A stretch of 64,000 bases of DNA from Terebella lapidaria (taxonomy: Eukaryota > Annelida > Polychaeta > Terebellida > Terebellidae): contig OX424555.1 in the NCBI GenBank assembly GCA_949152475.1, forward strand, positions 18,184,868-18,248,867. Reading direction: 5' to 3'. The position numbers were made by a program, and so were the translations under genes. The notes under the pieces are model-generated. The model saw only the letters and a list, made by a program, of their open reading frames with translations, did not search any database and was not told where the DNA came from. Shown here one piece after another: positions 1 to 22,555 of the stretch. Numbering within the stretch: position 1 is the first letter of the stretch; each line of letters begins with the position of its first letter.

Positions 1-1139
1 AGCCGCAGCCTGAGCGACGCAGAGGCTCTGCCAGAGCTGTAAGCTTACTGTCTGTAGTATATCTGGTATGCAAGTTGAAGTTAATCTTGCAGTCATGCTT
101 TGCCTTGGCTATGGTTTTGGCTAATGCTGAAATGACAAAATGATTCCAAGTGTGATTGTGATGTTCACAGCTAGCATAGATATATACTGTATACAGTTGC
201 AAAGTCGATAAAATAATATCTCTTCATAACTGAGATCCGCCGTTGCATCTAGATCCGCCTCAAATGTGGCATAGAGCACGTGGCAGTGCGACGTTTTGCA
301 CTCATTGAACCTGAGACTGAGTGAGGCTGGGCTGGCAACGTAACCACGGCACGGGTGATGTATTCTAGTATCATCATGTTTCATACATTGGGGGTAAAGC
401 CCCCAAACCCCCTAAACTAGGAAACTTTATCGAGATCTTTCACTTACCTTCAATTATCTACCATAATCGTAACAAACGGAGCTGGAAAATCACACGCTTC
501 TGAAATCAAAACAAAACTAGCGCCAAGTGACGCACGCGACTAGATCTACCTTGACCTTTGTTGTTGCTAGGGGCGTGGTGCAATGACGCGATATGATTGG
601 TTCGTATGCAAAAGCTATATACGCATAAAGATGACGTCATTCAATACGGTGCACAATACAGTTATAGCAATGCAAAAGCGACATTGCAATGAAATACATA
701 TTGAAAAATAAACTGAATGAGCTGTTGCGACCATATTATCGCAACCAAAAGTAAGTGTATGAATCACACTACAAAAATTTAGGGGAATATGGGTCGTAGA
801 TTGGGGGGTAAACCCCCCAAACCCCCCTAACCTACACAACTATCCAGACGTCTTCAGCCAAAATGCAGTATTAGCTGCGCCATATTTGGGTCCTCCATGG
901 CTTCATGGATTTGTGAATACACTACCAAACATGGCGCCTAGCCGCTTCGCGGCTAGCGATGTTGGTAAAAAGTACAAAAAACGTCATGTCCATTGTCTGC
1001 ATTATGCAAAAACAAACATGACAAAATTTTAATGCAACATTATTACGTTTTTGTATTATATGGCGCAGTAGACTGTTTCTATGGTTTATCTATACCCGAA
1101 TTACATGGTGGCGATTCTGGTGGCAAACGGGAACCTCCT
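1..1139. other. No recognisable gene; two G/C-run motifs and a small hairpin
   Basis: I see no supported coding region here. A motif made of a G run, TAAA, a C run, AAA and another C run occurs twice in the same orientation, near 390-415 and 803-832. A perfect 8-bp inverted repeat (CTAGCCGC, TTC loop, GCGGCTAG) lies at 938-956. The short ORFs have no family features. Confidence 0.5.
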
Positions 1140-1966
1140 TTGTTGGGCTTTGTTTCTGTTGCAAAATGTTGTATTTTATGTTTGTTATTGGAATCATCAA
1201 AATTTGGTTGTATTGGTGGTAATAGATTGATACTTACATTCATACCACTGAGCCGGTGTCACTGCTGGTGGACGTTAAGTCTGTCCCCGAGAATACCATC
1301 AACTCTGTAGCCTGTTGGCTTGTGATCAGGTACCTATGTACTTGTCATATATCTATTCCATGGGGTTTGTTTCGGATTTCTAAATTATTTTCATAGGTTC
1401 TGGGCAGTTGTATACTAATTCCATCAGGTGTACAGTAGAAACAACTACATTTACCACACTGTCTGCCCCTGATGACGCCAGTGTGTCTTTTGATAAAGTA
1501 ATTGGTCGGGCTTTGTTTCTGTTGCAAAATGTTGTATTTTATGTTTGTTATTGGAATCATCAAAATTTGGCTGTATTGGTGGTAATAGATTGATACTTAC
1601 ATTCATACCACTGAGCCGGTGTCACTGCTGGTGGACGTTAAGTCTGTCCCCGAGGATACCATCAACTCAGTAGCCTTTTGGCTTGTGATCAGGTACTTAT
1701 GTACTTGTCATATATCTATTCCATGGGGTTTGTTTCGGATTTCTAAATTATTTTCATAGGTTGTTGGGCAGTTGTATACTAATTCCATCAAATGTACAGT
1801 AGAAACAACTACATTTACCACACTGTCTGCCCCTGATGACGCCAGTGTGTCTTTTGATAAAGTAATTGGTCGGGCTTTGTTTCTGTTGCAAAATGTTGTA
1901 TTTTATGTTTGTTATTGGAATCATCAAAATTTGGCTGTATTGGTGGTAATAGATTGATACTTACAT
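1140..1966 (+). repeat. 364-bp tandem repeat, about 2.3 copies
   Basis: A unit starting TCATACCACTGAGCC and ending TTGATACTTACAT is present as a partial copy (1140-1239), a 363-bp copy (1240-1602) and a 364-bp copy (1603-1966), differing by a few bases. The third copy joins a LINE remnant. The second unit boundary (1603) is also the left end of the 2,793-bp duplicated segment. A reverse-strand fragment of the same unit lies near 32,740-32,880, so it is a dispersed repeat and not a local oddity. Confidence 0.85.
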
Positions 1967-2149
1967 TCTTGCAATATATATGTAATATGATCCCAAACTA
2001 CACGATAGTATACCCAAAAACTCCAGCAAAATTTTTTATGAAAATACTCATGATAATGGCTGACATCACTGAACAACATTGTGAGCAATATATTACAAAT
2101 GATGTATGCCGGATTAATGGCACAATTACATGGATTGTATAGCATACAC

Positions 2150-3450
2150 CTACACTCTAGTATTACATATATGATGTAGCTTTTGATACATTTGGGAAAT
2201 TCCAAGAAAAGAATAGGAATATGTTCATAGTTCATTTCCGTCCAAAGAAAAAATCACGCACACAATTCGAATTCCAATTTGCTGACAGTATTTTAGGTAA
2301 AGTGGACTCTTATAGGTATTTAGGAATTTATTTAGATGAATTTTTGGACTACGATAAATGTACACAAGTGTTAACAGAATCAGCAGGTAGGTTTGAAACT
2401 TGAAAATTGTTTGAAACTGGAGTTTTACCCGTATTACATTACGGTGCAGAAATATGGGGTTATGGAAGACACATCAGATGTGATACTGTCATTAATAGAG
2501 CTATGCGATATCGTTATGCCCCTGCGGCTGGTGTACAGGGAGATATGGCCTGGTTGTCTTTAAAGTTTAGACGATACATTCAGATGTTGAAATTCTGGAA
2601 CATACTTATTCAGTTAGACAGCAATAGAATTACCAAAAAAGTATTTTTATGGTGTTATGATAATACAGTTGGTGCGGTGAAATTATGAAAATTTCAGATG
2701 AATTAGGTCTAGCACATGTTTTTGAATCTAAGTATATTTGATGATGTTGTGGTTTATATGTTGTGGTTTACAACAGGTGTGATGAACGTATGTGTGAAGA
2801 ATGGAAAACAACTGTACAGAAGAAACCAAAGTTAAAAACAAATAGAGAATTTAAATTCGATTTCCAGGTAGAACCCTATATAATTTGCTATAGTTCTAAG
2901 TATGTTAGATCTGTATTTGCACAGTTCAGGTTTGGTATCCTCCCATTGCACAAAGAAACCGGTCGCTTTCAAAATGTATTCGATACAACTGAAGGCATAT
3001 ACAGAAGAATGACAATAGAAGAAAGAACTTGTAATATATGTAACTCTGGTGAAGTTGAGGATGAGATACATTTCATGTTTGTATGCAAAGGTTATCGAAA
3101 AGAAAGGAAACAATTTTTTTATTTCTGTAAATAATGTGAACCCGACTTTATCATGTTTATTAATATTTCGGATGTCGAGAAATTGAAGTACAGTATGAGT
3201 CATAACTGGAAATTGTGTGCAAAATATATGCAGCTATGGAAAAAACAAAAAAGTATTGTATACAAATAATGATGTTGTCAGACTACAGATAATCTCTGTT
3301 GCACCTACCAAAATTTAGGTTCTGGATAGAAGAGTCACTAATAAGTCCTGAAAGGGCTGGATGCTATTTCTCTTTACTGTATGTTCATTGTTGTTATTTT
3401 TATACATGCATATGTGACTATAATAAACAAATTCATTCATAAAGTACATG
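2150..3450 (+). pseudogene. 3' remnant of a LINE reverse transcriptase (copy A)
   Basis: Conceptual translation from 2221 gives the C-terminal part of a non-LTR RT. It contains a YRYLGIYLDE block, then VLPVLHYGAEIWGYG, then a terminal region (2763-3134) with a Cys-rich signature (CNICNSGEVEDEIHFMFVC) typical of LINE 3' ends. There is an in-frame stop at 2401-2403 and the reading breaks near 2688-2763. No RT catalytic core or endonuclease is present, so this is a 5'-truncated dead copy. It ends with AATAAACAAATTCATTCAT, a polyadenylation-like signal and short ATTC tail, near 3421-3440. I cannot place it to a LINE clade. Confidence 0.75.
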
Positions 3451-3460
3451 TTGCTGCAAC

Positions 3461-4229
3461 ATGATTATGGTTCAAACAGTACCCATGGTACAGGTGGTGA
3501 ATGTAAAGTCATCTTCAGCTTGCTTGACAAATTCACAAACCAAACTCAAAAAGTTGTTTAGTAGGATTGAGAACAATCTGATGATTGATGCATGTGAATT
3601 TGTGAAACATGGATACACTGAGGATGACTCGGACATTGAAGGTGCCTGTTTTCCAACAGCGATTCGGATTTTGAGATGCATGATGTACCATCTCAAACAG
3701 AACACCTCAAACTCATCAACAAAGTTATCCAAGTGGGACGCAGCTAAACTTGTCCTGTCCAAAGTCACTCCTTTCTATGAAAAAAGGGAACATTCCTATG
3801 ATTTCACAACGGAAAGCATGCGAAAAAATAATCAAAGTTGTGGACGAAAATAACAAGTTGAGAGCGATACCAGTTGCTCGGCGATCAACACCATCCGTTA
3901 CAGCTGAAGTGCAGATTGCTCTTAGAGAACTTTCAGAGACATTTATTTGTGGCCATGCAATGCAGAGACACTGGTAAAAAAAAAACCCTGAGGACCTAAA
4001 ATTTCTGCGGTCTATGAAGAGCGACCGTGTCGCATCATTCGCCTCAGCAGATAAAGTGTCAGCCCAAAAGTTTGAACACAAGGAAGGCCGAGCTGCAGCA
4101 AAATCCCGACAGATCGAAAAGGCACAGAATATCACTGAAAGCATGTATGCCACAACCAGTGGTGCTAATATCACAGACAGTCAATCCGAAAATGGAAACA
4201 CACAACGCCAATATGATAAGCTATTATGA
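3461..4229 (+). pseudogene. Relic of an unrecognised protein-coding sequence (copy A)
   Basis: About 130 codons from 3461 and a downstream part in another frame (ending near 4229) read like one protein. The first part is helical with Asp/Glu-rich and Ser/Asn-rich stretches; the second holds KVVDENNKLRAIPVARR and a basic helical tail. I do not recognise the family. The reading is broken, and the identical segment recurs at 10,644-11,412. It could be a fragment of a mobile-element protein or a retrocopied host gene. Confidence 0.4.
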
Positions 4230-4332
4230 ATTTATATGTGCACTTATTATAGTACGCATTTTACATGTCAATGAACTTCATATTAACCAGACAGATACTA
4301 CCCTATACAGTACGTGGTTTCATACTGCCCGC

Positions 4333-4378
4333 GGTCGTTTCACGGAGCCAGAGCTTGCGAGGAATCCGCGAAACGACC
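4333..4378. repeat. Inverted repeat just upstream of the PLE
   Basis: GGTCGTTTC (4333-4341) pairs perfectly with GAAACGACC (4370-4378) across a 28-nt loop. The hairpin ends 17 bp before the PLE 5' boundary. The same hairpin at 11,516-11,561 ends the right-hand copy of the duplicated segment. Confidence 0.6.
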
Positions 4379-4418
4379 AAGGGTAGAATAAAACCTAGAA
4401 TAAAAACTAGAGACTTCC

Positions 4419-4456
4419 GCACTTGACAAAGGATTCAACTCCGAAACCGGTCGTGC
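4419..4456 (+). ncRNA. Hammerhead-ribozyme-like fold with degenerate core
   Basis: In the PLE 5' UTR, GCAC (4419-4422) pairs with GTGC (4453-4456) as helix I. GGA (4431-4433) pairs with TCC (4440-4442) as helix II, followed by GAAA (4443-4446), a self-complementary ACCGGT helix III, and a GTC triplet at 4450-4452. This is the layout of the short-helix-III hammerheads known from PLEs. The CUGANGA core is not intact (about TTGACAA), so catalytic positions corresponding to C3 and G8 appear changed. It may be inactive, divergent or coincidental. Confidence 0.35.
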
Positions 4457-4689
4457 AACAGGCAGAGTACATTGTGAGTAACCTCTTTTATATTGTTTTG
4501 TATTATTTTGTTGTGTTTTAGATACTGGTCAGATTATTGACCATATCTTTGCATTCAGGTTTCTTCAAACGTTTTGTTCTCATTTTATACAATTGTTTTT
4601 ATTTTTCATAATTTTATCCTTTGGTTTTATCATCCAAATCAATCACGTTCTGGTTTTAATACTTTCAAAATTAATTGCTGAAACGTATC

Positions 4690-6399
4690 ATGGCTCTTTC
4701 TAAACCTCCTCACTTCCGTTCTTTTTACACTCTTCTTCAATGCTTTCACCACCTGTCACTAATGCTCCAGCAGTCTCAAGGCCAAGTCACCAGGGCTTTC
4801 AGTAAAAAACAACAACACCTGGATGACTTCATTAAACCTGCTTGTTCTGGTCCCCTAATCAAACAAAAAATCTCCAAAATTAATCAAAATTGGGTACAAA
4901 ACGTGACCAAACATTTGGTGGAACACTATGAGAGCTCAATTCAAAACCTTTTGGCCCACATTTCCTCTTTAGGTTTATCAGATTCGGACATTGCAAATTC
5001 GGTAGCTCTCGTCATTCAGCAGGCTAAATCTCATTTCGGCAAAAAACTTCAGGCTTCCACCATCCAGAAATTCAAAACCTCTACTCTTCCAAATTCCCCT
5101 ATTCCAAATTCTAACTCTCAATCAAAACCTCAGACTTGCGAGGTAAAAGGTCACAAACACCCACTTAGTAATTTCTTCCCATGTAATATATCCTATCGTG
5201 GTATGAGATTCCCTAGCCTTGAGCACATCTATCAGTATCACAAAGCCCGGTACCATGACTGTCAACACCTAGCCAATCGGATCCTCAGGGCTCCCCATGC
5301 AGGAGTGGCCAAACGTTTGGCTAGTGAAATTCCTAGCCTGTCCCCATTCTGGCATAAAAGTAAAAATGGAATCATGCGTCAACTTCTTCAAGTTAAGTTT
5401 AATTCTTGCAAATTGTTCCGTGACACTCTGATGGGTCTTCCTGAAGGGTGTCACATTGTCCATCCAGTTCCTGACAGCCACTGGGGTGTTAACCGTCATG
5501 GTCAAGGCTCTAACTTCTTTGGCCGCCTCCTAATGGACCTAAAACGTGCCAACTCTCCTACTAACAATCCTAAACCCTCTCGCTCTTCACCTCCATCTTC
5601 AAATAACACCCCTCCCTCTGTGTCCACTTCTAACCGCTTCCAACTCCTTGATACCCTCTCTAACCCTCCTTGTCTATCATCATCTGATGATTGGCCACCT
5701 CTCTCTCGCTCTTCTCCTGATAACCGCCTTAGTGCCACGCCCAAACGGCGTCCGCGCTCTCCCTCTTCTCCTGAACTCTCACCCTCCTCTCTACCCAAAG
5801 GCAAACGTACTCGCTTTGTCTCTCCTAAAAACTCTCCTAACACCACTTTCCATGTCTCTCCTTCCACTATCAGAGGACCCAAAACTCTTTGGGCCCTTCC
5901 TAAACTAACCTCCTCCACTGTCATCCTCGGCTCTTCTAACCTTTCTCGCATCACCAAATCCCCTGTCAGTGATATCCAAGTTGTGTCTTATCCTGGAGCT
6001 TTGTTCAACCATCTAAGAATGATGTTCACGGCCTGTAAAAAATCATTTGATGCCCCCCAAAACTTAATCTTAAGTGTAGGCCTGAACAATCGAAGCTCCA
6101 AACCAAGTGTTACTTCAATTCCAGAACTGAGGAATATGCTCAGCAGTGCTTTCCGAATCTTCCCCCACTCCAAAATTCTCATTCCAAAAATTAACTACTC
6201 AGACAATCTTCCGTCTGTAGAGAAACGCAACTTGGATATGATTAACAGGGCTTTGGATGACATGAGTTCACGTTTCAGCAATCTCACAGTTGTTAAACAG
6301 TTGGATCCAATCAAGTTTTCTACACAGACAGATAACATTCATTGGACTGAACAAACGGCCAATGAAATGTTGAAATTCTGGCTCAGTCATTTAAACTAA
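4690..6399 (+). CDS. PLE ORF1: NADAR + SGNH-hydrolase-like protein
   Basis: I chose the ATG at 4690 (ATCATGG context), giving 569 residues. Residues 1-150 are helical and basic with no family I know. Residues about 153-285 form a complete NADAR (YbiA-like) domain: HPLSNFFPC, FPSLEHIYQYHKAR and the C-terminal PDSHWGVNRHGQGSN block ending LLMDLK. Residues 286-400 are a Ser/Pro-rich linker. Residues about 408-566 resemble an SGNH hydrolase: GSSNLSR (block I, nucleophile Ser), SVGLNN (block III) and DNIHW (block V Asp/His). NADAR enzymes are known to remove ADP-ribose, including from guanine bases, and esterase-type ORF1 domains are known in some LINEs. A role in countering host ADP-ribosylation or in particle or membrane association is inference. 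The ORF ends in a slippery heptamer before its TAA, with ORF2 in the -1 frame. Confidence 0.85.
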   Translation: MALSKPPHFRSFYTLLQCFHHLSLMLQQSQGQVTRAFSKKQQHLDDFIKPACSGPLIKQKISKINQNWVQNVTKHLVEHYESSIQNLLAHISSLGLSDSDIANSVALVIQQAKSHFGKKLQASTIQKFKTSTLPNSPIPNSNSQSKPQTCEVKGHKHPLSNFFPCNISYRGMRFPSLEHIYQYHKARYHDCQHLANRILRAPHAGVAKRLASEIPSLSPFWHKSKNGIMRQLLQVKFNSCKLFRDTLMGLPEGCHIVHPVPDSHWGVNRHGQGSNFFGRLLMDLKRANSPTNNPKPSRSSPPSSNNTPPSVSTSNRFQLLDTLSNPPCLSSSDDWPPLSRSSPDNRLSATPKRRPRSPSSPELSPSSLPKGKRTRFVSPKNSPNTTFHVSPSTIRGPKTLWALPKLTSSTVILGSSNLSRITKSPVSDIQVVSYPGALFNHLRMMFTACKKSFDAPQNLILSVGLNNRSSKPSVTSIPELRNMLSSAFRIFPHSKILIPKINYSDNLPSVEKRNLDMINRALDDMSSRFSNLTVVKQLDPIKFSTQTDNIHWTEQTANEMLKFWLSHLN

Positions 6400-6427
6400 A
6401 TCATTCTGAGAGTCCACCGAACTCCAG
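6390..6427 (+). promoter_or_regulatory. Candidate -1 ribosomal frameshift signal
   Basis: TTTAAAC occupies 6390-6396 and is phased as T TTA AAC in the ORF1 frame, directly before the ORF1 stop (6397-6399). After a 9-nt spacer, CTG-A-GAGT pairs with ACTC-CAG (6406-6427) around a 7-nt loop. The ORF2 frame is open from 6366, lies in the -1 frame and has no ATG before its conserved N-terminal region. T TTA AAC is the classical coronavirus heptamer. A frameshift would give an ORF1-ORF2 fusion of about 1,330 residues. Confidence 0.65.
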
Positions 6428-8678
6428 TACGACTAATAATGTTGTAAACCTTTCCAAATTTACACTTTCGGACACACAAATCGCTCTTCTAAATCGTGGT
6501 TTGACATTTGTTCCCACACCCAAAATAACATTGGATCCAATTAAACAAGCTGTGCAAGATTTTGGTAGAAAACTCAAACTTCAAAATTATTTTTCTCACC
6601 GTCCAAATTCATTCACAAATAGATCAAAATTCACTCCAAAATCTACCTGGACTCCACCGAGTTCCATGATTGACAAGCCCGTTTTAGATTGCATTTCGGC
6701 AATATCTAAGGAAATTGAAAACTTGAAAATTCAACCAGAAACCAAAAACCTAACGAAAATGGAATATAAAACTATAAAGAATTTACAAAATAACGTAGAC
6801 TTGGTAATTAAAAAAGCAGATAAAGGTAGTGCAGTCGTAATTATGGATAGGCAAAATTATATTAATGAAGGCTTTCGTCAATTATACAATCCAGCTCATT
6901 ACAGCGAAATTGACACTCCTCTTTACCTAGAAAATTCAGCAAAAATAACAAAAATTTTAAAAGGATTACGCAATTCTGGATGCCTTTCTGAAAAAGTATT
7001 CCAATTTCTTTTACCACCAGAACGCCCTCGTCAAAGAAGATTTTATATGCTACCTAAAATTCATAAACCCAAAGACTCCTGGCCAATTCCAAATGTAATG
7101 CCTCCAGGGCGCCCAATTGTTTCGGACTGCAGCAGTGAATCTGAAAAAGTAGCTATGTATATTGATTCATATATAAAAGATCAAGCAAATAAGCATCCGT
7201 CATATATAAAAAACACGTATGACTTTTTAGATAAAGTTAGAGGGCTTGAACTAGATCCAAATTCTTTACTAATCACTTTAGATGTTGAAAGTATGTATAC
7301 TAATATAAATCATGAAGAAGGTATCCAAGCAATTAAAAATGCATTCCCGACTTTGGCAAACAATGAACTATTCAAAGGTATAATAGAATTATTGGAAATT
7401 TCACTTAAATGTAATGACTTTGAATTTGACGGTAAGACATTCCTACAAGTTTCAGGCACAGCCATGGGTCAGAAATATGCACCTCATTATGCAGATATTT
7501 ATATGGCTGAATTTGAAAAGCAAGCTTTACAAAAGTGTCCATTCAAACCAGATTGCTATTATAGGTATTTAGATGACATTTTCCTCATTTGGCCACATGG
7601 CATTTCCAAATTTCACCAGTTTCTCGAAATTTTCAATTCTCATAGGGCATCAATCAACTTCAAAGCTGAAATTAGTACTGATTCAGTTAATTTTTTGGAT
7701 ACTACTTTGTTCAGGAGCAAAGAAAACACATTAGAAGCAAAAGTTTTCTTCAAGCCAACGGATACTCATCAGTTGTTGCATAAGCTCTCTTTTCATCCAA
7801 AACACACTTATAAAGGACTAATCAAGTCCCAAGTTTTTCGATTTTTCCAAATTTGCTCATATCCAGATGATGTTGAATCAGCTTGTCAAATATTATTCAA
7901 GGCACTTTCGAAACGTAACTATTCAAAACGTTGGCTTCGCAAAATCAAGAATGAAACATTGAGAATTTTGAACAGTGAGGAAAGACTAGGTGCTGATTTT
8001 CAATTGCCCACTTCCAGCTCGTCTGGCTCAAAACCTTGTAATTCTAGACAATGTCAGACATGTCATTTAGTTCCAAATTGTCAAAATTTCTCGGGATCAG
8101 TTTTTGAACAGACCTACTCAATCAACTCAGCTTTGGATTGCAACTCAGAAAATATAATTTATCTATACACTTGTAAGCTTTGCGAAAAACAATATGTAGG
8201 TGAAACCGGTAAATCACTCAAATTCAGAAACAATCGTCACCGTGCTGCAATAACTAGCTGCAATGAGGAAAATGCATTATACAGTCATCTATCTAAATTT
8301 CACAGCAAAACTGAATTTTCCATTGAATGTTTTTCTCTTTTACCAATTGAACAGGTTTCCGATCTTGGTGATGAACTTTTAAACAAACAATGGCGACTTG
8401 AAAGGGAATATTGTTGGATTGATACTCTAGGCACTTTCGAACCTCATGGCCTCAACGTTCAAAAATTTACAAAGTATGACCCTTTGAACAAAAGTAAAAA
8501 TAAATTCGACATGGTGTATATAGTACCCTTCTCAAAAACAGGTACTCTTTCAGCCCAAATTGTTAAAAAGCATATGAAACAACTCAACAAAAATACTGAT
8601 GGTGATATTAAAATAGCAACAGCTTACAAGAAGCATCAAAATCTTAAAGAACTTTTAGTCAGAAGCAAACTTAAATAA
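6396..8678 (+). CDS. PLE ORF2: reverse transcriptase with C-terminal GIY-YIG endonuclease
   Basis: About 760 residues if read from the -1 frameshift; no ATG lies near the conserved start. The N-terminal part has the PLE signature IKKADKGSAVVIMD. RT motifs are LDVESMYTNI (motif A), GTAMGQKYAPHYADIYM (motif B) and YRYLDDIF (motif C, YLDD). A Cys-rich linker (KPCNSRQCQTCHLV) follows, then the GIY-YIG nuclease: YLYTCKLCEKQYVGET, FRNNRHR and the late REYCWIDTLGTFEPHGLN block. This order (RT then GIY-YIG) is canonical PLE, which primes from nicked or exposed DNA ends. The reading frame is uninterrupted and catalytic residues are present, so it looks competent. TAA at 8676-8678. Confidence 0.93.
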   Translation, partial: LNHSESPPNSSTTNNVVNLSKFTLSDTQIALLNRGLTFVPTPKITLDPIKQAVQDFGRKLKLQNYFSHRPNSFTNRSKFTPKSTWTPPSSMIDKPVLDCISAISKEIENLKIQPETKNLTKMEYKTIKNLQNNVDLVIKKADKGSAVVIMDRQNYINEGFRQLYNPAHYSEIDTPLYLENSAKITKILKGLRNSGCLSEKVFQFLLPPERPRQRRFYMLPKIHKPKDSWPIPNVMPPGRPIVSDCSSESEKVAMYIDSYIKDQANKHPSYIKNTYDFLDKVRGLELDPNSLLITLDVESMYTNINHEEGIQAIKNAFPTLANNELFKGIIELLEISLKCNDFEFDGKTFLQVSGTAMGQKYAPHYADIYMAEFEKQALQKCPFKPDCYYRYLDDIFLIWPHGISKFHQFLEIFNSHRASINFKAEISTDSVNFLDTTLFRSKENTLEAKVFFKPTDTHQLLHKLSFHPKHTYKGLIKSQVFRFFQICSYPDDVESACQILFKALSKRNYSKRWLRKIKNETLRILNSEERLGADFQLPTSSSSGSKPCNSRQCQTCHLVPNCQNFSGSVFEQTYSINSALDCNSENIIYLYTCKLCEKQYVGETGKSLKFRNNRHRAAITSCNEENALYSHLSKFHSKTEFSIECFSLLPIEQVSDLGDELLNKQWRLEREYCWIDTLGTFEPHGLNVQKFTKYDPLNKSKNKFDMVYIVPFSKTGTLSAQIVKKHMKQLNKNTDGDIKIATAYKKHQNLKELLVRSKLK

Positions 8679-9332
8679 TCCAACAAAATTTGTTCAATGT
8701 CGCTCATTGAATTTTTATTGCTGTTTTATGTTATGTGTTACTCTTACAATTATCTTGTGCCAGTGCATTTTTTATACTCTCCAAATCATACCACTGAGCC
8801 GGTGTCACTGCTGGTGGACGTTAAGTCTGTCCCCGAGGATACCATCAACTCAGTAGCCTTTTGGCTTGTGATCAGGTACTTATGTACTTGTCATATATCT
8901 ATTCCATGGGGTTTGTTTCGGATTTCTAAATTATTTTCATAGGTTGTTGGGCAGTTGTATACTAATTCCATCAAATGTACAGTAGAAACAACTACATTTA
9001 CCACACTGTCTGCCCCTGATGACGCCAGTGTGTCTTTTGATAAAGTAATTGGTCGGGCTTTGTTTCTGTTGCAAAATGTTGTATTTTATGTTTGTTATTG
9101 GAATCATCAAAATTTGGCTGTATTGGTGGTAATAGATTGATACTTACATTCTTGCAATATATATGTAATATGATCCCAAACTACACGATAGTATACCCAA
9201 AAACTCCAGCAAAATTTTTTATGAAAATACTCATGATAATGGCTGACATCACTGAACAACATTGTGAGCAATATATTACAAATGATGTATGCCGGATTAA
9301 TGGCACAATTACATGGATTGTATAGCATACAC

Positions 9333-10633
9333 CTACACTCTAGTATTACATATATGATGTAGCTTTTGATACATTTGGGAAATTCCAAGAAAAGAATAGG
9401 AATATGTTCATAGTTCATTTCCGTCCAAAGAAAAAATCACGCACACAATTCGAATTCCAATTTGCTGACAGTATTTTAGGTAAAGTGGACTCTTATAGGT
9501 ATTTAGGAATTTATTTAGATGAATTTTTGGACTACGATAAATGTACACAAGTGTTAACAGAATCAGCAGGTAGGTTTGAAACTTGAAAATTGTTTGAAAC
9601 TGGAGTTTTACCCGTATTACATTACGGTGCAGAAATATGGGGTTATGGAAGACACATCAGATGTGATACTGTCATTAATAGAGCTATGCGATATCGTTAT
9701 GCCCCTGCGGCTGGTGTACAGGGAGATATGGCCTGGTTGTCTTTAAAGTTTAGACGATACATTCAGATGTTGAAATTCTGGAACATACTTATTCAGTTAG
9801 ACAGCAATAGAATTACCAAAAAAGTATTTTTATGGTGTTATGATAATACAGTTGGTGCGGTGAAATTATGAAAATTTCAGATGAATTAGGTCTAGCACAT
9901 GTTTTTGAATCTAAGTATATTTGATGATGTTGTGGTTTATATGTTGTGGTTTACAACAGGTGTGATGAACGTATGTGTGAAGAATGGAAAACAACTGTAC
10001 AGAAGAAACCAAAGTTAAAAACAAATAGAGAATTTAAATTCGATTTCCAGGTAGAACCCTATATAATTTGCTATAGTTCTAAGTATGTTAGATCTGTATT
10101 TGCACAGTTCAGGTTTGGTATCCTCCCATTGCACAAAGAAACCGGTCGCTTTCAAAATGTATTCGATACAACTGAAGGCATATACAGAAGAATGACAATA
10201 GAAGAAAGAACTTGTAATATATGTAACTCTGGTGAAGTTGAGGATGAGATACATTTCATGTTTGTATGCAAAGGTTATCGAAAAGAAAGGAAACAATTTT
10301 TTTATTTCTGTAAATAATGTGAACCCGACTTTATCATGTTTATTAATATTTCGGATGTCGAGAAATTGAAGTACAGTATGAGTCATAACTGGAAATTGTG
10401 TGCAAAATATATGCAGCTATGGAAAAAACAAAAAAGTATTGTATACAAATAATGATGTTGTCAGACTACAGATAATCTCTGTTGCACCTACCAAAATTTA
10501 GGTTCTGGATAGAAGAGTCACTAATAAGTCCTGAAAGGGCTGGATGCTATTTCTCTTTACTGTATGTTCATTGTTGTTATTTTTATACATGCATATGTGA
10601 CTATAATAAACAAATTCATTCATAAAGTACATG
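9333..10633 (+). pseudogene. 3' remnant of a LINE reverse transcriptase (copy B)
   Basis: Identical in the compared stretches to the remnant at 2150-3450, including the same in-frame stop (9584-9586). It therefore duplicated after it died. Confidence 0.75.
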
Positions 10634-10643
10634 TTGCTGCAAC

Positions 10644-11412
10644 ATGATTATGGTTCAAACAGTACCCATGGTACAGGTGGTGAATGTAAAGTCATCTTCA
10701 GCTTGCTTGACAAATTCACAAACCAAACTCAAAAAGTTGTTTAGTAGGATTGAGAACAATCTGATGATTGATGCATGTGAATTTGTGAAACATGGATACA
10801 CTGAGGATGACTCGGACATTGAAGGTGCCTGTTTTCCAACAGCGATTCGGATTTTGAGATGCATGATGTACCATCTCAAACAGAACACCTCAAACTCATC
10901 AACAAAGTTATCCAAGTGGGACGCAGCTAAACTTGTCCTGTCCAAAGTCACTCCTTTCTATGAAAAAAGGGAACATTCCTATGATTTCACAACGGAAAGC
11001 ATGCGAAAAAATAATCAAAGTTGTGGACGAAAATAACAAGTTGAGAGCGATACCAGTTGCTCGGCGATCAACACCATCCGTTACAGCTGAAGTGCAGATT
11101 GCTCTTAGAGAACTTTCAGAGACATTTATTTGTGGCCATGCAATGCAGAGACACTGGTAAAAAAAAAACCCTGAGGACCTAAAATTTCTGCGGTCTATGA
11201 AGAGCGACCGTGTCGCATCATTCGCCTCAGCAGATAAAGTGTCAGCCCAAAAGTTTGAACACAAGGAAGGCCGAGCTGCAGCAAAATCCCGACAGATCGA
11301 AAAGGCACAGAATATCACTGAAAGCATGTATGCCACAACCAGTGGTGCTAATATCACAGACAGTCAATCCGAAAATGGAAACACACAACGCCAATATGAT
11401 AAGCTATTATGA
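10644..11412 (+). pseudogene. Relic of an unrecognised protein-coding sequence (copy B)
   Basis: Duplicate of the relic at 3461-4229, broken in the same way; family unknown. Confidence 0.4.
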
Positions 11413-11578
11413 ATTTATATGTGCACTTATTATAGTACGCATTTTACATGTCAATGAACTTCATATTAACCAGACAGATACTACCCTATACAGTACGTGG
11501 TTTCATACTGCCCGCGGTCGTTTCACGGAGCCAGAGCTTGCGAGGAATCCGCGAAACGACCAAGGGTAGAATAAAACC

Positions 11579-12408: not shown

Positions 12409-14258
12409 TCAGTGTTGATCGGTTTTACAGGGTGTCAGGTGCCCTTTGTGTTGAGAGCTGAAGTCCTTTGCGCTGTCCTCAGCCATGGTCACGGTCACCG
12501 TGTCATGGAAGTACGTGTAGTCGATGGCGTAGAGGCCGCGCGTGGAGCGGGTGAGCAGGGAGCGCAGAGTATGGCCCCAGAGGATCTCGGCGGGCAGATA
12601 GGAGGTCCGTACCTGGAAGCTGGCGCCCGTAACCTCGCCCACGCCCTCCATCACGACTATCAGCTCCCAGTCTTGGAGAAACAGCGTCTCTTCGGTCAGG
12701 TCCCACAGCGGGCTGCGCTCGTCCACGACGTGCACGACGAGAATAGGCCATGCTAGGAACATGAAGTCGCTGCCGCTCTCCGTCGTTACGGGCACGTCCT
12801 GGGTGACGATGGGCAGTCTCTCTCCTTCCTCCGTCGTCTTGCGCCTGGCCAGCAGCACACGAATCGTGACGCCGAGCACCTGGGAGCTCCGCATATCGCC
12901 CACGCGGAACATAAGCATGCGGCGCCCGTCTCGCTGTGTGATCACCGCATTCTTGCTGAACAGTATCGTCTGTGCGCGGCGCTTGGGCCGTGCCATCTTG
13001 GCGAATATAATTCCAGTCAGTATACACTGCATTATGACTCCGAACATTGACTGGATCATGAGGAGAATAGTTGCGAATGGACAGTAGGGTGTGATGGCGC
13101 GTGTCCCGTACCCGATAGTGTGCTGGGTTTCTATAGAGAAGAGCAGTGACGTGGGGAAGTCTGTGACACCTTGGACACACAGCACGTTACTGGCCTCCAG
13201 GCTACTATTGGTGTCATGGTGACCGTACAGTGACCTGCGGTCAATACTGATCAACGCCCACCAGATCAAAGCGAAGAACAGCCAACTGAGCCCAAAAGCC
13301 AGAGCAAAGATCAGGATGTGGTAGCGCCACCTCATCTCAAGCACAGTGGTGAAGAAGTCGTGCAGAAATCGCCACCGCCTGTCTGAGATCTTAGAGTGGA
13401 TGACACGGCACTGACCGTTCTTGGTGATGAGGCGGTCTTCTTCCTTTTTTCTCTTGGCAAAAGATAGCCCACGCTTGGCGAGAGCTTGGATTTTGTGATC
13501 ATGTCGTGCTGAGTTTTTTCCAACAGAATGTAACGTGCGGTTCCAGGTCCCATTCTGATCGTGCGAAGGATGACACGTGACATTATCGGCGTCTATGTTA
13601 ATTCTTACGCACTTGATGTTGTTCTGGTGATCCACGTCCAGTTTGTGCGAGGCGTCTGGTATGTCTGGGGTTGGTTCCTCTGCTATGGTCGGTGCTATGG
13701 CAGGGCCATGCCAGGTACGGGCCGAGTTGTGACGAGTAAGAGTGGCTGCAGGCTGCGACACGTCCACCGGGTTTGGTCCGTAATTCGTCACCTCGAAGTT
13801 ATGTCGGCCGGATATTACGGAGTAACTCCGAGCATATTGCGGCCTTGTGGACGCCTGAACAAGTGTCGTTTCTGAGCTTCTCATGTCTGGAAACGCAACA
13901 ATTAGTCAGTTCATTCGCGGTCTAATCCACCGCACCTTCCAGCTCCTCTACATTTCATACACACGTTCATGTCGACCATCATCCCACACTAAGATATATC
14001 AGAACAAATATATCCCATCTAACTGAAGTATTGAATACTCCGTCTTAATCTGCAGGGACAACGTGAGACCATAGATCACGCACCTGTCAGGGACAAGGAG
14101 TCTGCACCCAGGCCATCGCTGTCCGTGTCCGATAGGAGATGGGTGTCTGAGGTGGGTTCGGTGGTCCGTCTGGGCCGCTCCGTAGTACTGTCGCCCTTCT
14201 CCCCCTCCCCGGCCGGCTCGGTCTCCCGGCGCACCCGCGGTACATGGCATCCCGGCAT
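12409..14258 (-). CDS. Inward-rectifier potassium channel (Kir family), two coding exons
   Basis: Exon 1 is 14,258-14,084 (donor CTGACAG|GTGCGT) and exon 2 is 13,886-12,409 (acceptor TTTCCAG|AC). The 197-bp intron joins in phase, giving about 550 residues. The Kir core begins near residue 210 (RLITKNGQCRV), with a slide helix (FLHDFFTTVLEMRWR), TM1 about 247-269, a pore with TIGYG about 315-319 between conserved Cys residues, TM2, then KMARPKRRAQT (PIP2-contact region) and the full cytoplasmic immunoglobulin-like domain to WELIVVMEGVGEVTG and ILWGHTLRSL. Gln (about 345) occupies the TM2 rectification-controller site where Kir2.1 has Asp. The N-terminus is about 150 residues longer than usual and rich in Ser, Thr and charged residues. 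It lacks clear features of one vertebrate subfamily. A start inside exon 2 (13,884) is possible but would ignore the clean exon-1 join. Confidence 0.93.
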
Positions 14259-14777: not shown

Positions 14778-16198
14778 CGGTGGCTACTATCTGTTTTTTT
14801 TTGGGTTTTTTTTCGGACAAAATTTAAACCTGGCGGTTTTTATGAAAATATTTTACTCCAGACAATAAAATTCACGAGCTAAATTCTTTCCCTCGCGAAT
14901 AATATTGCTGATGCACTTTTATTCTTATATTCACGAATTTCGAGTAATTTGCGAGGAAAATAATTTAGCTTGCGATTTTTATTGCTAAAAGAATTAAATT
15001 CATGAAGAAAAACACGAGTTAAACTATTTACTTCGCGAATAAAATTGCTTTGGCGATTTAATTCGTGAATCTAATAATAAAACTCGCGATTTATATTATC
15101 TCAGTACGGAGCCCCTGAGGTGACATACAAAATATATATATTAATCTGTGCGCACGTGTGACAATTTGTGCGCACGATTTACTAATTCGTGCGCATGAAA
15201 TACTAATTTGTGGCCACAAAATACTAATTTGTGGCCATGAAATACTAATTCGTGGCCACAAAATACTAATTCGTGCGCACGATTTACCAATTCGTGGGCA
15301 TGATTTAATAATTTGTAGGCACGACTTAATAAATCGTGTGCACAATTTAACAATTCGTGGGCATGATTTAAAAATTCGTGGGCATGATTTAACAATTCGT
15401 GTGCATGAATTACCAAACTGTGCGCACAATTTAACAATTCGTGGGCATGATTTAACAATTCGTGTGCATGAATTACCAAACCATGCACACAATTTAACAA
15501 TTTGTGGCCACAAATTAACAATCTGTGGGCAAGATTTACTATTTCGTGTGCACGAAATACTAATTCGTGTGCACGAAATTCTAATTCATGCCCATGAATT
15601 GGTAAATCGTGCCTACAGAGTATACCAATCCGTGGCCATGAAATACTAATTCGTGCGCACGAATTGTTAAATTGTGCGCACGAATTGCTAAATCGTGCGC
15701 ACGAATTGTTAAATCGTGCCCACGGATTGTTAAATAGTGCCCACGGATTAGTTAAGGTAATTTGTGCGCACGAATCGTTGAATCGTGCGCACGAATTACT
15801 GATTTGTGTGCACGAATTAGTATTTTGTGGCCACAAATTAGTATTTCGTGCGCACAAATTGTTAAATCGTGCGCACGAATTATTAAATATTTTCGGATTG
15901 TCACCTCAGGGGCTCCGTATCTCAGCAATATTATTCGCGAGGGAAATAATTTAGTTCACGGATTTTATTGCTAAAAGAATTTAATTCGTGAAAAAACCTT
16001 GCGAATAAATTTGCTTTGGCAATTTAATTCGTGAATATAACAATAAAACTCGCGATTTTTATGGCCTCAGCAATATTATTCACGAGGGAAATAATTTAGC
16101 TCGCGATTTTATTGTTTGGAATAAAATATATTCTATAAAAACGGACAGGTTGAATTTTTTTTCCGAAAATAAAAAACCTTGGCAGATAGTATCCACCG
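14778..16198. mobile_element. Foldback / long-TIR element with TA target duplication
   Basis: The ends are inverted repeats: left begins CGGTGGCTACTATCTG, right ends CAGATAGTATCCACCG, flanked by TA (14,776-14,777 and 16,199-16,200). The arms run about 330 bp with repeated AT-rich stretches containing TTCACGAG/CTCGCGA-type words, up to an inner inverted pair GGAGCCCCTGAGGTGACA and its complement. The centre is a 21-bp palindromic array. No transposase is encoded. TA duplication and TIRs suggest a non-autonomous Tc1/mariner-like or foldback element; the superfamily is inferred. Confidence 0.75.
15140..15895. repeat. 21-bp palindromic tandem array, about 36 units
   Basis: Units have the form TAATTCGTGCGCACGAATTAC with central variants GTGCGCAC, GTGGCCAC, GTGTGCAC and GTGGGCAT. 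The 21-bp period is two turns of B-DNA and a multiple of three, so several frames on both strands stay open and encode meaningless 7-residue repeats (for example NRAHELL). The units are mostly self-complementary, so the array is cruciform-prone. It forms the core of the foldback element. Confidence 0.85.
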
Positions 16199-16200
16199 TA

Positions 16201-17224
16201 ACATTCACAGGATATAAGTAGGCCTACATCTACATACATTCGAACAGCAAGGTCGTTTGTAGGGAAGCGGACTTGTATTCAGTTAAATGTGCATTAAAAT
16301 AAACATTCGTATATAGACGTACACGACGTTTGCAAATCACAATCATTAAAGAAGTAAGTGGATATCACGACTTGATAAGGGGAAACACTCCCCCCCCCCC
16401 CCTCCCTCCGCCCCTCACCTTCACTCTAAGCACATCGCCATGCGGTGAAGATAACTAGCGTTTCTATTTGTATTAAAAATTGTATACACAAGACGTCGGG
16501 TAAAAAGTAAGCCCGGTATATTCAAATACCCCCATACAAAACCTCCCGGGACACGTACCGTAGGGTGTGATGTGATCCGCTACAATATCCAAAGTAATAT
16601 ATCGATGACACTGGATCTCTGCTTTGTTATTATACGCACTTTACAAATGTAAACACCAATGTGTCCGGTGTGTATCAACGTGTCACAGAATGCCCATCTG
16701 TTTCGCGTGGTTACATTCACAGGATATAAGTAGGCCTACATCTACATACATTCGAACAGCAAGGTCGTTTGTAGGGAAGCGGACTTGTATTCAGTTAAAT
16801 GTGCATTAAAATAAACATTCGTATATAGACGTACACGACGTTTGCAAATCACAATCATTAAAGAAGTAAGTGGATATCACGACTTGATAAGGGGAAACAC
16901 TCCCCCCCCCCCCCTCCCTCCGCCCCTCACCTTCACTCTAAGCACATCGCCATGCGGTGAAGATAACTAGCGTTTCTATTTGTATTAAAAATTGTATACA
17001 CAAGACGTCGGGTAAAAAGTAAGCCCGGTATATTCAAATACCCCCATACAAAACCTCCCGGGACACGTACCGTAGGGTGTGATGTGATCCGCTACAATAT
17101 CCAAAGTAATATATCGATGACACTGGATCTCTGCTTTGTTATTATACGCACTTTACAAATGTAAACACCAATGTGTCCGGTGTGTATCAACGTGTCACAG
17201 AATGCCCATCTGTTTCGCGTGGTT
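16201..17224 (+). repeat. 512-bp tandem duplication
   Basis: 16,201-16,712 is repeated at 16,713-17,224 with no difference that I could find, including a 13-nt C run. The left copy starts one base after the TA flank of the foldback element. No coding content is recognised. The identity suggests a recent duplication or an assembly duplicate. Confidence 0.9.
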
Positions 17225-18173
17225 ACACTATACTCGGCCAGTTGATAATGTCGCCTATGTTATCTGCCTGTCATGCGAATTTTGGCCTATTTCTAGTTTC
17301 CGGCTCGGGTAGCACAAGACTCTCAATGTTGTTCTACGGAATGCGCGTGGCAGTAAAATAATGGCGAGAAATTTCGAGGAATATTTCGGGCGCTAGATAA
17401 CGAAGTCCTCTCACTCCTGTGAACATTGTGCACCCGAAAAAGGGAATTTGAACGTTCAAAGCTCAATTATGTACATGTATATCGAACAAACACAGGCCAC
17501 ATCATCGAATTAGTCATTTATACAAACGGCGTCGTGTGACGTATTTAAAACCGTGATCAGGGAGAGTACATGAATTAGGCTCCACTGTATGTAAAAAAAA
17601 ACATCTTTACCAAGTGTAACTGGATGGAATAGAAAACGATATCGAAATAAATATCAATAAATATCACTGAAAATATAGTTCCTATAAGAGACATTGGTTT
17701 GACCGGTTTGAAATGAAAACCTAACGCTGGTAATCTTATAGCCGACTTTCCTGAGCGGAATTCCACAGTGGAATTGTTTATCATCAAAATGATATATATG
17801 CCCGATCTGCCCTCGCACAATATTTGTTCGGTTACTCCGGTGCTGCCGCACAAACCGTTCAATGCAGCAGACTTCCTCTGAGATTTTCGCTTCCTTCACA
17901 TCGGCATGGAAATAATCGAAATGTATAATATCGTTATAAAGCAAGTATAGAATGTTCCTCTCGGGATAGTATTTCCAATGCAAGTATCCGAAGTATAGAC
18001 CGAATTCCTGTAGATCTATTCCACATGAACATGTAACAGGCAACATAATGTATGTATATCCGGTCACCAAAATTGGTTGTATCTTTTTAATGAAAAGAAT
18101 AATTATCAATTTTCAACTTTCTATTTATTACACGACATACCTCGTACTTCACTGCAGATTCATGTTGTTGTTT
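17225..18173. other. No recognised gene
   Basis: A 151-codon minus-strand ORF (17,654-18,109) is the longest open stretch; it has Cys and aromatic residues but no signature I recognise and no supporting splice context. Otherwise AT-rich unique sequence. Confidence 0.4.
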
Positions 18174-20155: not shown

Positions 20156-20938
20156 TCAAACGAATTTCATCGAAAACCAATGTAAACGAGTTTGAAAAAT
20201 CAGAGTATTGTCATTTTGGCAAAGTAGACAGACAAGGAAACATAGTTACTAAACAATAAAGAACGCGTTCAATGATATTCAACTTTTCTCAGCAACAATG
20301 ATCAGATATTGTTCCATCAACACCAATAATGGAATTTACTTATAATATGTCAATTTTGGGAGCACTGTACTTTGCAGTGGTGTATAGACGTCAACAAATT
20401 GATGATATCTCTCACTCTTTAACTTCAGCCCCGAAATATCGCTTGATTACAAGGTGTCAAGTTAATTAATTATTATTGTCTCCCCACAGGGGAGGCTTCC
20501 TTGACGCCTTCTGAGAATCCCATGGAGGGATAGGCCTCTACTCTTCAATCCTGAGGAAAAATCTGTTTTAATGCAGAGTTGAACGTATATGATTGACTTA
20601 ATTATTATAATCTGACAAATACACTCATCGAATGTAGCGATTTCTCGCCGCTTTTCCTGATTATCAACAAGGTGTGCATTCAGCCAACCGGGAATTATTT
20701 TTTCCCTGCTGCCGAGCCATCGCTCACCTCGCACATTCGATCTCGTTACTTTTAATAATCATGTGCATTATGCATTAATTTTTCACTCTCCCATAACGAG
20801 CTAAGTATGGGTTATTGTATTATGAAGAGAACTTTCGCGTACCTATTGTGAGAGCCACCAGGCGAGGCATAATACAGTAACTCATTTATTTACAACTCAC
20901 GCCCAGACAGATTCCAGACACTTGTGTTCAGTGTCTGT
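20156..20938. other. No recognised gene; left flank of second PLE
   Basis: AT-rich sequence without supported ORFs. It includes the left copy of the PLE target duplication (20,921-20,938). Confidence 0.45.
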
Positions 20939-22537
20939 TTTGGAGAGAATAAAAAATGCACTGGCACAAGATAATTGTAAGAGTAACACATAACATAAAA
21001 CAGCAATAAAAATTCAATGAGCGACATTGAACAAATTTTGTTGGATTATTTAAGTCTGCTTCTGACTAAAAGTTCTTCAAGGTTTTGATGCTTCTTGTAA
21101 GCTGTTGCAATTTTAATATCACCACCAGCACTCTTGTTGAGTTGTTTCATATGCTTTTTAACAATTTGGGCCGAAAGAGCACCTGTTTTTGAGAAGGGTA
21201 CTATATACACCAGGTCGAATTTATTTTTACTTTTGTTCAAAGGGTCATACTTTGTAAATTTTTGAATGTTGAGGCCATGAGGTTCGAAAGTGCCTAAAGT
21301 ATCAATCCAACAATATTCCCTTTCAAGTCGCCATTGTTTGTTTAAAAGTTCATCACCAAGATCGGAAACCTGCTCAATCGGCAAAAGAGAAAAACAATCG
21401 ATGGAAAATTCAGTTTTGCTGTGAAATTTAGATAGATGACTGTATAATGCATTTTCCTCATTGCAGCCAGTTATTGCAGCACGGTGACGATTGTTTCTGA
21501 ATTTGAGTGATTTACCGGTTTCACCTACATATTGTTTCTCGCAAAGCTTACAAGTGTATAGATAAATTATATTTTCTGAGTTGCAATCCAAAGATGAGTT
21601 GATTGAGTAGGTTTGTTCAAAAACTGATCCTGAGAAATTTTGACAATTTAGAACTAAATGACATGTTTGACATAGTCTAGAATTACAAGGTTTTGAGCCA
21701 GATGAGCTGGAAGTGGGCAATTGAAAATCAGCACCTAGCCTTTCCTCACTGTTTAGAATTCTCAATGTTTCATTCTTTATTTTGCGAAGCCAACGTTTTG
21801 AATAGTTACGTTTCGAAAGTGCCTTGAATAATGTTTGGCAAGCTAATTCAACATCATCTGGATAGGAGCAAATTTGGAAAAATCGAAAAACTTGGGACTT
21901 GATTAGTCCTTTATAAGTGTGCTTTGGATGAAAAGAGAGCTTATGCAGCAACTGATGAGTATCCGTTGGTTTGAAGAAAACTTTTGCTTCTAATGTGTTT
22001 TCTTTGCTCCTGAACAAAGTAGTATCCAGAAAATTAACTGAATCAGTGCTAATTTCAGCTTTGAACTTGATTGATGCCCTATGTGAATTGAATATTTCGA
22101 GAAACTGATTAAATTTGGAAGTGCCGTGTGGCCAAATGAGGAAAATGTCATCTAAATACCTATAATAGCAATCTGGTTTGAATGGACACATTTGTAATGC
22201 TTGCTTTTCAAATTCAGCCATATAAATATCTGCATAATGAGGTGCATATTTCTGACCCATGGCTGTGCCTGAAACTTGTAGGAATGTCTTACCGTCAAAT
22301 TCAAAGTCATTACATTTAAGTGAGATTTCCAATAATTCTATTATACCTTTGAATAGTTCATTGTTTTTCAGAGTCGGGAATGCATTTTTAATTGCTTGGA
22401 TACCTTCTTCATGATTTATATTAGTATACATACTTTCAACATCTAAAGTGATTAGTAAAGAATTTGGATCTAGTTCAAACCCTCTCACTTTATCTAAAAA
22501 GTCATACGTGTTTTTTATATATGATGGATGCTTATTT
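20939..22537 (-). mobile_element. 5'-truncated Penelope-like element, same family as the full copy
   Basis: It corresponds base for base in length (1,599 bp) to 7,187-8,785 of the full element, reading on the minus strand, and ends at the same CTCTCCAAA. It is flanked by an 18-bp direct repeat, CTTGTGTTCAGTGTCTGT, at 20,921-20,938 and 22,538-22,555. The 5' end is cut inside the RT, before motif A. This copy fixes the element's 3' terminus. Confidence 0.92.
21046..22537 (-). pseudogene. RT/GIY-YIG ORF of the truncated PLE
   Basis: Open from the truncation point to the normal stop, with RT motifs A-C (YRYLDDIF), the Cys linker and the whole GIY-YIG nuclease. It differs from the full copy by a scatter of residues, for example FPTLKNNE for FPTLANNE. 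The frame happens to run on upstream for about 44 codons into flanking DNA (to 22,668), which is a chance chimera. It lacks the N-terminal RT region and ORF1, so it is a non-functional copy. Confidence 0.85.
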
Positions 22538-22555
22538 CTTGTGTTCAGTGTCTGT

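What the first reader, a model, noticed from the sequence alone, without database searches (positions are those of the whole stretch)
4690..8678. Penelope-like element carrying a NADAR + SGNH-hydrolase ORF1
PLEs are usually described as a single RT/GIY-YIG ORF. Here an intact upstream ORF has a complete NADAR domain (PLSNFFPC, FPSLEHIYQ, HWGVNRHGQGSN) and an SGNH-like domain (GSSNLSR, GLNN, DNIHW). NADAR enzymes are known to strip ADP-ribose from guanine in DNA and related substrates. A retroelement that nicks DNA and primes from breaks could use this to undo PARP- or DarT-like modification at its target; that role is inference. I cannot check whether this architecture has been published.
Basis: partly seen in the sequence, partly recalled or inferred. 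Interest (0 to 1): 0.88.

Follow-up and report, generated by a model that had tools for sequence, protein, structure and literature searches.

The report
Penelope retroelement with NADAR-SGNH ORF1
A young, multi-copy jumping element in an animal genome carries two extra enzyme-like domains in front of its copying enzyme, probably joins them to it by ribosome slippage, and at most of the insertions examined is flanked by two copies of 0.8 to 5 kb of the DNA it landed in, which is very unusual.

Summary
Window 4411-8785 is a Penelope-like element (PLE): ORF1 (4690-6399) has a helical N-domain, a NADAR domain and an SGNH domain; a second frame encodes RT plus GIY-YIG. ORF1 belongs to the element: 76 near-identical ORF1 copies were scored in this genome, and relatives on unnamed public contigs (22-54% identity) keep it; four related ORF1/RT pairs share a contig length. 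(1) ORF1 ends T TTA AAC TAA and RT lies in the -1 frame; 19 of 22 aligned ORF1s hold LN at that place, and 23 of 30 RT relatives that reach far enough upstream carry FK[LR], so a -1 frameshift fusion is likely. (2) Of 11 non-tandem copies tested, 9 are flanked by direct duplications of target DNA, 99.5-100% identical, about 0.8-5.2 kb (both edges seen in two); two were uninformative. A truncated copy in the window has 18 bp. NADAR in Gypsy Pol and LINE ORF1 is published; NADAR in a PLE and kb-scale duplications were not found in my open-access searches. NADAR keeps catalytic E and K but mostly lacks the third acid; activity and role are untested.

The parts
1603..4395 (+). Target sequence X, upstream copy (2793 bp), preceded by TTACAT at its left edge
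   Evidence: 100% identical to 8786-11578; its left edge lies inside an uninterrupted 363-bp satellite (1139-1968), so that edge looks ancestral
4396..4410 (+). 15-nt filler at the 5' junction, repeating TAGAATAAAA of the flank (by eye)
4411..8785 (+). PLE body; start matches a probable transcription start (TATAAATA about 30 bp upstream in tandem units, missing here)
   Evidence: shared by other copies at 98-100%; tandem unit about 4918 bp
4690..6399 (+). ORF1, 569 aa
4714..5085 (+). ORF1 N-terminal helical domain (LLQCxHHL ... FIKPA ... HY ... FGKKL), conserved also where NADAR is missing
5128..5553 (+). NADAR domain; E178 and K185 match catalytic E43/K50 of P. nicotianae NADAR; the E125 position is V, followed by an H invariant in 14 of 14
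5902..6396 (+). SGNH-fold domain with S416, N466, D548, H551
6390..6396 (+). Slippery heptamer T TTA AAC directly before the ORF1 stop TAA; the -1 frame reads F-K-L
6390..8678 (+). RT/GIY-YIG frame, probably entered by -1 frameshift (the listed ORF starts at a TTG, 6501)
7230..7664 (+). Reverse transcriptase core (YLDD)
   Evidence: RVT_1 E=3.3e-11
8154..8426 (+). GIY-YIG endonuclease domain, preceded by invariant Cys residues
8786..11578 (+). Target sequence X, downstream copy (2793 bp)
20928..22541 (-). Second, 5'-truncated copy of the same PLE (96% identity) with an 18-bp target duplication ACAGACACTGAACACAAG (read by eye)

Best explanation
This is an endonuclease-bearing Penelope-like retroelement, recently active in its host. 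Its mRNA starts at about 4411 (inferred). ORF1 (helical domain, NADAR, disordered linker, SGNH) is translated first; at U UUA AAC UAA some ribosomes slip back one base and make an ORF1-RT-GIY-YIG fusion (inferred from sequence conservation, not shown). The fusion nicks ACAT-rich DNA and primes reverse transcription from the element's 3' end (inferred from junctions). The other end of the cDNA is then joined, with short filler in some copies, to a DNA end 0.8-5 kb downstream, so that the stretch between is present on both sides (the flanking copies are shown; how they form is inferred, most likely a second 3' end on the sister chromatid, or kb-scale strand peeling and resynthesis). SGNH probably serves as in LINE ORF1 esterases (exact role unknown). 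NADAR most likely removes ADP-ribose from guanine in the element's RNA, cDNA or target (inferred from the family).
For: Domains. ORF1 kept in relatives. ORF1 and RT on contigs of equal length in 4 cases (4805, 5762, 5375, 14721 bases). Copies: 76 scored of 1292 first-look candidates; 74 of 76 without a stop. Frameshift: heptamer plus stop in 34 of 34 loci, four of them copies fetched twice, and in 11 of 12 further loci; 15 of 22 ORF1s end exactly in LN and 4 more hold LN there; FK[LR] in 23 of 30 RT relatives that reach far enough upstream. Duplications: 9 of 11 non-tandem copies; the nine flanks are unlike one another, 0 of 36 pairs matching; control 2 of 42 PLE-free pieces of the window, both from one tandem duplication; a tenth case, L024, from coordinates alone, about 4.56 kb. 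Selection.
Against: No stimulatory RNA structure behind the heptamer (z = -0.48). DNA of the distant relatives was not available, so the heptamer there is read from protein only; 7 of 30 RT relatives lack FK[LR]. The third NADAR catalytic acid is missing in 13 of 14. Both outer edges of the duplication are in hand for two copies only (window, L028); the other seven lengths assume that the second copy starts at the element's 3' end. In L032 the flank recurs twice downstream, so X there holds a repeat of its own. All 11 copies were picked for an intact ORF1, and the one truncated copy examined has an 18-bp duplication. Element-free tandem duplications exist in the window (41106-44874, and 16198-17227, which the control's thresholds missed). 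The dN/dS rests on one divergence and on loci ranked by protein similarity.
Confidence: 0.72

Rival explanations
1. ORF1 is not part of the PLE: a LINE ORF1 or host gene happens to lie upstream of a single-ORF PLE.
For: NADAR is very common in this genome and the eight other NADAR loci examined resemble a LINE-type ORF1; NADAR is published in LINE and Gypsy elements.
Against: ORF1 and RT lie in one 4.4-kb unit found at many places; the junction with the heptamer is constant; relatives keep both; the 14 PLE NADARs form one group apart from the nine LINE-type rows (99/97).
Confidence: 0.02
2. RT is translated by termination-reinitiation or from an internal start instead of frameshifting, giving separate proteins.
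For: The stop follows the heptamer at once; no stimulatory structure was found; 7 of 30 RT relatives lack FK[LR].
Against: Conserved residues (FKL, NLSxxxL) lie upstream of the first ATG of the RT frame; both readings of the heptamer, LN in one frame and FK in the other, are conserved.
Confidence: 0.15
3. The long flanking repeats are true terminal repeats (pLTRs) or captured spacers that travel with the element.
For: PLEs have pLTRs, and rotifer Pen1 has 0.9-1.5-kb captured spacers (PMC3846280, passages). Tandem units here carry a near-constant 537-bp spacer in the four junctions printed.
Against: The nine flanks share nothing (0 of 36 pairs), while 4411-8785 is shared; the left edge of X in the window lies inside an undisturbed satellite, and in L040 the right edge runs on into a 134-bp array.
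Confidence: 0.08
4. The duplications are an assembly artefact or come from later unequal exchange.
For: Element-free recent tandem duplications exist in the window.
Against: 9 of 11 copies, on five contigs, with the repeat ending at the element; control 2 of 42 pieces.
Confidence: 0.07
5. NADAR here is not a nucleic-acid de-ADP-ribosylase but a degenerate domain used for binding, or a YbiA-like N-glycosidase.
For: E125 equivalent replaced in 13 of 14; E. coli YbiA acts on riboflavin intermediates (PMC11543638, passages).
Against: E43, K50 and W133 equivalents kept in 14 of 14, D130 equivalent in 12 of 14; a phage NADAR retains activity, and phage NADARs have His in place of the acid (PMC11125620, abstract and passages).
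Confidence: 0.35

Closest known systems
Canonical endonuclease-bearing Penelope elements
   Same: RT followed by GIY-YIG, tandem copies, 5' truncation
   Different: Described as one ORF, and with 8-10-bp duplications in the A. vaga cases shown (PMC6431247 and PMC3846280, passages); here ORF1 with NADAR/SGNH, a likely -1 frameshift, kb-scale duplications
Terminon PLEs of rotifers (Athena group; that name is recalled)
   Same: Extra ORFs including GDSL (SGNH) esterases
   Different: They lack the endonuclease on the RT ORF and sit at telomeres (PMC6431247, passages)
NADAR-bearing Gypsy of Ectocarpus and Tx1 LINEs of Pacific oyster
   Same: Retroelement carrying a YbiA-family NADAR domain (PMC12477816, passages)
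   Different: Other retroelement classes; the published sequences were not compared here. LINE-type NADARs from this genome lie apart from the PLE NADARs
ZfL2-1 retrotransposon ORF1 esterase, PDB 4c1b
   Same: SGNH domain in a retroelement ORF1, sequence match 1.1e-7 to the profile
   Different: A LINE (recalled), and the solved domain shows no NADAR
L1-bridged tandem duplications in human cancer
   Same: One retroelement insertion between two copies of a duplicated segment; joining to a second 3' overhang on the sister chromatid is proposed (PMC7058536, passages)
   Different: The tandem case shown there is 22.6 Mb and somatic; here about 0.8-5 kb in an assembled genome, in 9 of 11 copies tested

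Membership tests
Penelope-like element (endonuclease type) | RT plus C-terminal GIY-YIG in one frame | tested here: met
   RVT_1 above cut-off; GIY-YIG below cut-off in the window copy but hit in 13 of 19 aligned proteins; Y598, G600, R609, H613, E669 (A2 numbering) invariant in 19
Penelope-like element (endonuclease type) | Partial or full tandem copies, 5' truncation | tested here: met
   30 of 76 copies in 4.85-5.0-kb arrays; 5' truncations
Penelope-like element (endonuclease type) | RT groups with PLE/telomerase RTs on a tree | not tested
   No named PLE reference sequences at hand; the 120 listed RT relatives bear no informative names
Penelope-like element (endonuclease type) | Single ORF (usual description, not strictly defining) | tested here: not met
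   Two ORFs in different frames; PLEs with two ORFs, without endonuclease, are described
NADAR superfamily | Sequence profile and YbiA fold | tested here: met
NADAR superfamily | Catalytic E43 and K50 | tested here: met
   14 of 14 NADAR-bearing ORF1s
NADAR superfamily | Third catalytic acid (E125/D171), or His as in phage | tested here: inconclusive
   Acid absent in 13 of 14; an invariant His sits one residue later, but the place of the phage His was not checked
SGNH hydrolase | Fold and Ser/Gly-Asn/His blocks | tested here: met
-1 ribosomal frameshift | Slippery X XXY YYZ in the zero frame, downstream ORF in -1 frame | tested here: met
   T TTA AAC
-1 ribosomal frameshift | Downstream stimulatory structure | tested here: inconclusive
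   z = -0.48 for 112 nt, no pseudoknot search
-1 ribosomal frameshift | Fusion protein made | not testable with these tools
   needs expression data

The most novel reading that the evidence does not exclude
A clade of PLEs uses a Gag-Pol-like frameshift to put an ADP-ribosyl-hydrolase-bearing ORF1 on its RT, as a counter to host guanine ADP-ribosylation of element DNA or RNA, and integrates by bridging two DNA ends kilobases apart, so that full-length insertions regularly duplicate 0.8-5 kb of host DNA. That would make it a standing engine of segmental duplication and could explain how PLE pseudo-LTRs (such as the 537-bp promoter spacer of the tandem units) arise.
Probability: 0.25. Interest if true: 0.92.

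Novelty: new variant of a known kind. Interest (0 to 1): 0.76.

Why it matters
If the duplications form at insertion, this is a retroelement whose ordinary integration makes kb-scale direct duplications, which joins retrotransposition to segmental duplication and gives a natural system for studying how PLEs, relatives of telomerase RT, finish an insertion. The frameshift would give endonuclease-type PLEs a Gag-Pol-like plan. NADAR in PLE, LINE and Gypsy elements suggests repeated recruitment of an ADP-ribose eraser; clams are reported to ADP-ribosylate guanine N2 in DNA, with CARP-1 purified from one (PMC11209040, passages), so a host-element contest over DNA ADP-ribosylation can be tested directly.

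Tried and rejected
Rfam scan of 2500-11500 at E<=1: no family. RNA structure behind the heptamer: none beyond shuffles. PDB sequence search with ORF2: none at E<=1. The profile search A1 against the protein collection (only 7989 candidates scored) listed 22 proteins, of which only P0144 and P0145 were new, both outside the PLE group. Related loci in viral and prokaryote contigs: the alignment was not conserved enough to search with. The own genome searched with NADAR-less P0014: 97 of 978 first-look candidates scored; all 12 loci fetched were this family. The first NADAR tree had P0007 cut at a wrong place; it was redone. For 17 of the 22 ORF1s the listed 120 (of 1962) RT hits gave no contig of equal length; the near-identical P0001 and P0024 lie on contigs of different length (4365 and 4749), so they do not count as a pair.

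Papers, ten searches: NADAR + Penelope-like (2 papers; passages read in PMC12477816, the other seen in the listing only); NADAR domain + retrotransposon (the same paper); Penelope-like + frameshift + ORF1 + GIY-YIG (1: PMC6431247, passages read); Penelope-like elements + terminal repeats + GIY-YIG + hammerhead (2, listing); NADAR + Tx1 + LINE (20, only PMC12477816 relevant by title); Penelope + target site duplications + retroelement + kb-long (none); NADAR + guanosine (passages read in PMC11543638, PMC11125620 and PMC11209040); long target site duplications + retrotransposon + endonuclease (6, nothing relevant by title); L1-mediated + tandem duplication (8; passages read in PMC7058536); Penelope-like elements + ribosomal frameshifting (none). 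PMC3846280 was read in passages. Two key PLE papers (PMC8557442, PMC5850863) are not held. 'Not found in print' therefore rests on open-access text and these terms only. No whole paper was read.
Full report
What is there. ORF1 (4690-6399) and an RT/GIY-YIG frame (to 8678) lie in one element. The body shared by the other copies runs from 4411 to about 8785 (one search gives 4411-8791; the exact end is read). The genome is 761.6 Mb, and the window is G000:C1:18184868-18248867. The search with ORF1 scored 76 of 1292 first-look candidates; all 76 were 98-100% identical and 74 had no stop inside. Thirty of the 76 lie in head-to-tail arrays with a unit of about 4.9 kb. In the four tandem junctions printed, a 537-bp spacer holds a TATA box about 30 bp upstream of 4411, the point where 5 of the 11 single copies studied begin (window, L040, L043, L026, L034; one begins at 4375 and five are shorter at the 5' end). 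The single copies therefore look like inserted mRNAs, and the window copy has no spacer promoter.

Selection. Between two subfamilies ORF1 differs by 23-27 synonymous and 8-9 nonsynonymous changes, dN/dS about 0.1 (35 of 37 long frames used, 22 different). Every informative pair involves L053, so this is one independent comparison, and the loci were ranked by protein similarity, which favours a low ratio. Long intact ORFs at 22-54% identity in relatives point the same way.

Frameshift. ORF1 ends CAT TTA AAC TAA; the -1 frame reads TTT AAA CTA and is open to the RT stop. The heptamer with its stop is in 34 of 34 loci (four are copies fetched twice) and in 11 of 12 others. Of 22 aligned ORF1s, 15 end exactly in LN and four more hold LN at that place. 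Of the 120 listed RT relatives (of 1962 found), 26 had no recognisable anchor, 64 were too short, and of the remaining 30 with at least 36 residues upstream 23 carry FK[LR] there and 7 do not. LN and FK are the two readings of the same seven bases. No stimulatory stem was found. That UUUAAAC is an efficient slippery site is recalled, not looked up.

Duplicated targets. In the window the 2793 bp before and after the element are identical. Of 30 fetched ORF1 loci, 12 have no other PLE sequence directly upstream; I examined 11 of these (L013 was left out). Nine have an upstream flank repeated downstream at 99.5-100% over 801-2793 bp. The right edge of the second X lies 809, 915, 1552, 2792, 2796, 2903, 3409, 4010 and 5201 nt behind the element's 3' end. 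Both edges of X were in hand only for the window (2793 bp) and L028 (806 bp); the other seven numbers are lengths only if X starts at the element's end. In L032 the flank recurs twice downstream. The nine flanks share nothing with one another (0 of 36 pairs). L026 lies in a repetitive array (94-95% matches) and in L031 no 3' end was found, so neither is informative. L024 gives about 4.56 kb from coordinates alone, taking two equal ORF1 pieces 8942 bases apart as the two copies of X. As a control, 2 of 42 PLE-free 800-bp pieces of the window had a copy of at least 400 bp and 99% within 11 kb, both from one tandem duplication; a further 512-bp tandem duplication escaped these thresholds. The truncated copy at 20928-22541 has only an 18-bp duplication (by eye), so short duplications also occur.

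Direction of the event. In the window the left edge of X sits inside an unbroken satellite, in L040 the right edge runs on into an array, and X differs from locus to locus, so X is target and not terminal repeat. The two left edges seen follow ACAT (TTACAT, ACATACAT). Behind CTCTCC the four printed tandem junctions read AAAACATAC, and L041 and L042 do too; the other single copies start A-rich and then differ. This fits priming by short pairing between the RNA end and ACAT-rich targets, but the sample is small. At the 5' junction 5 of 9 copies have 2-15 nt of filler; in three (window, L043, L027) it repeats neighbouring sequence by eye, a pattern recalled as typical of polymerase theta. The geometry matches the scheme drawn for an L1-made tandem duplication, cDNA joined to a second 3' overhang downstream on the sister chromatid (PMC7058536, passages); the case shown there is 22.6 Mb and somatic.

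Role of NADAR. Guanine ADP-ribose is removed by several characterised NADARs (PMC11543638, PMC11125620, passages), and six edible clams show guanine-N2 ADP-ribosylation of DNA (PMC11209040, passages). A counter-defence is therefore reasonable, but the host of this window is not identified and no activity is shown.

Verdict. The likely frameshift and the kilobase duplications make the element more interesting than the finding as given.

Noticed in passing
window 1603-4395 and 8786-11578: Exact 2793-bp direct repeats flanking the PLE, read as a duplicated target
   Followed up: yes
window 20928-22541 (-): 5'-truncated PLE copy, 96% identity, with an 18-bp target duplication
   Followed up: partly
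window 1139-1968: 363-bp satellite, 97.6% identical units, crossing the left edge of X
   Followed up: partly
window 41106-44874: Tandem duplication with a period of about 1656 bp, 99.9% identical, no PLE involved
   Followed up: no
window 16198-17227: Adjacent tandem duplication of about 512 bp, 99.8% identical
   Followed up: no
window 48292-53182 and 56511-56760: Satellite with a period of about 147-149 bp, near nucleosome size
   Followed up: no
window 12409-13884 (-): Intact 491-aa ORF that looks like an inward-rectifier potassium channel (TIGYGTR; by eye, no search)
   Followed up: no
genome G000, e.g. L001-L008: Very many NADAR domains (973 first-look candidates, 150 scored); the eight loci examined resemble a LINE-type ORF1
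   Followed up: partly
G000:C13 8346824, 8355081, 8363338: PLE ORF1 pieces at equal spacing of 8257 bp, perhaps an array of element plus duplicated target
   Followed up: no
tandem units, e.g. L018 700-1236: 537-bp promoter-bearing spacer between tandem copies; possibly an old target duplication that became a pseudo-LTR
   Followed up: no
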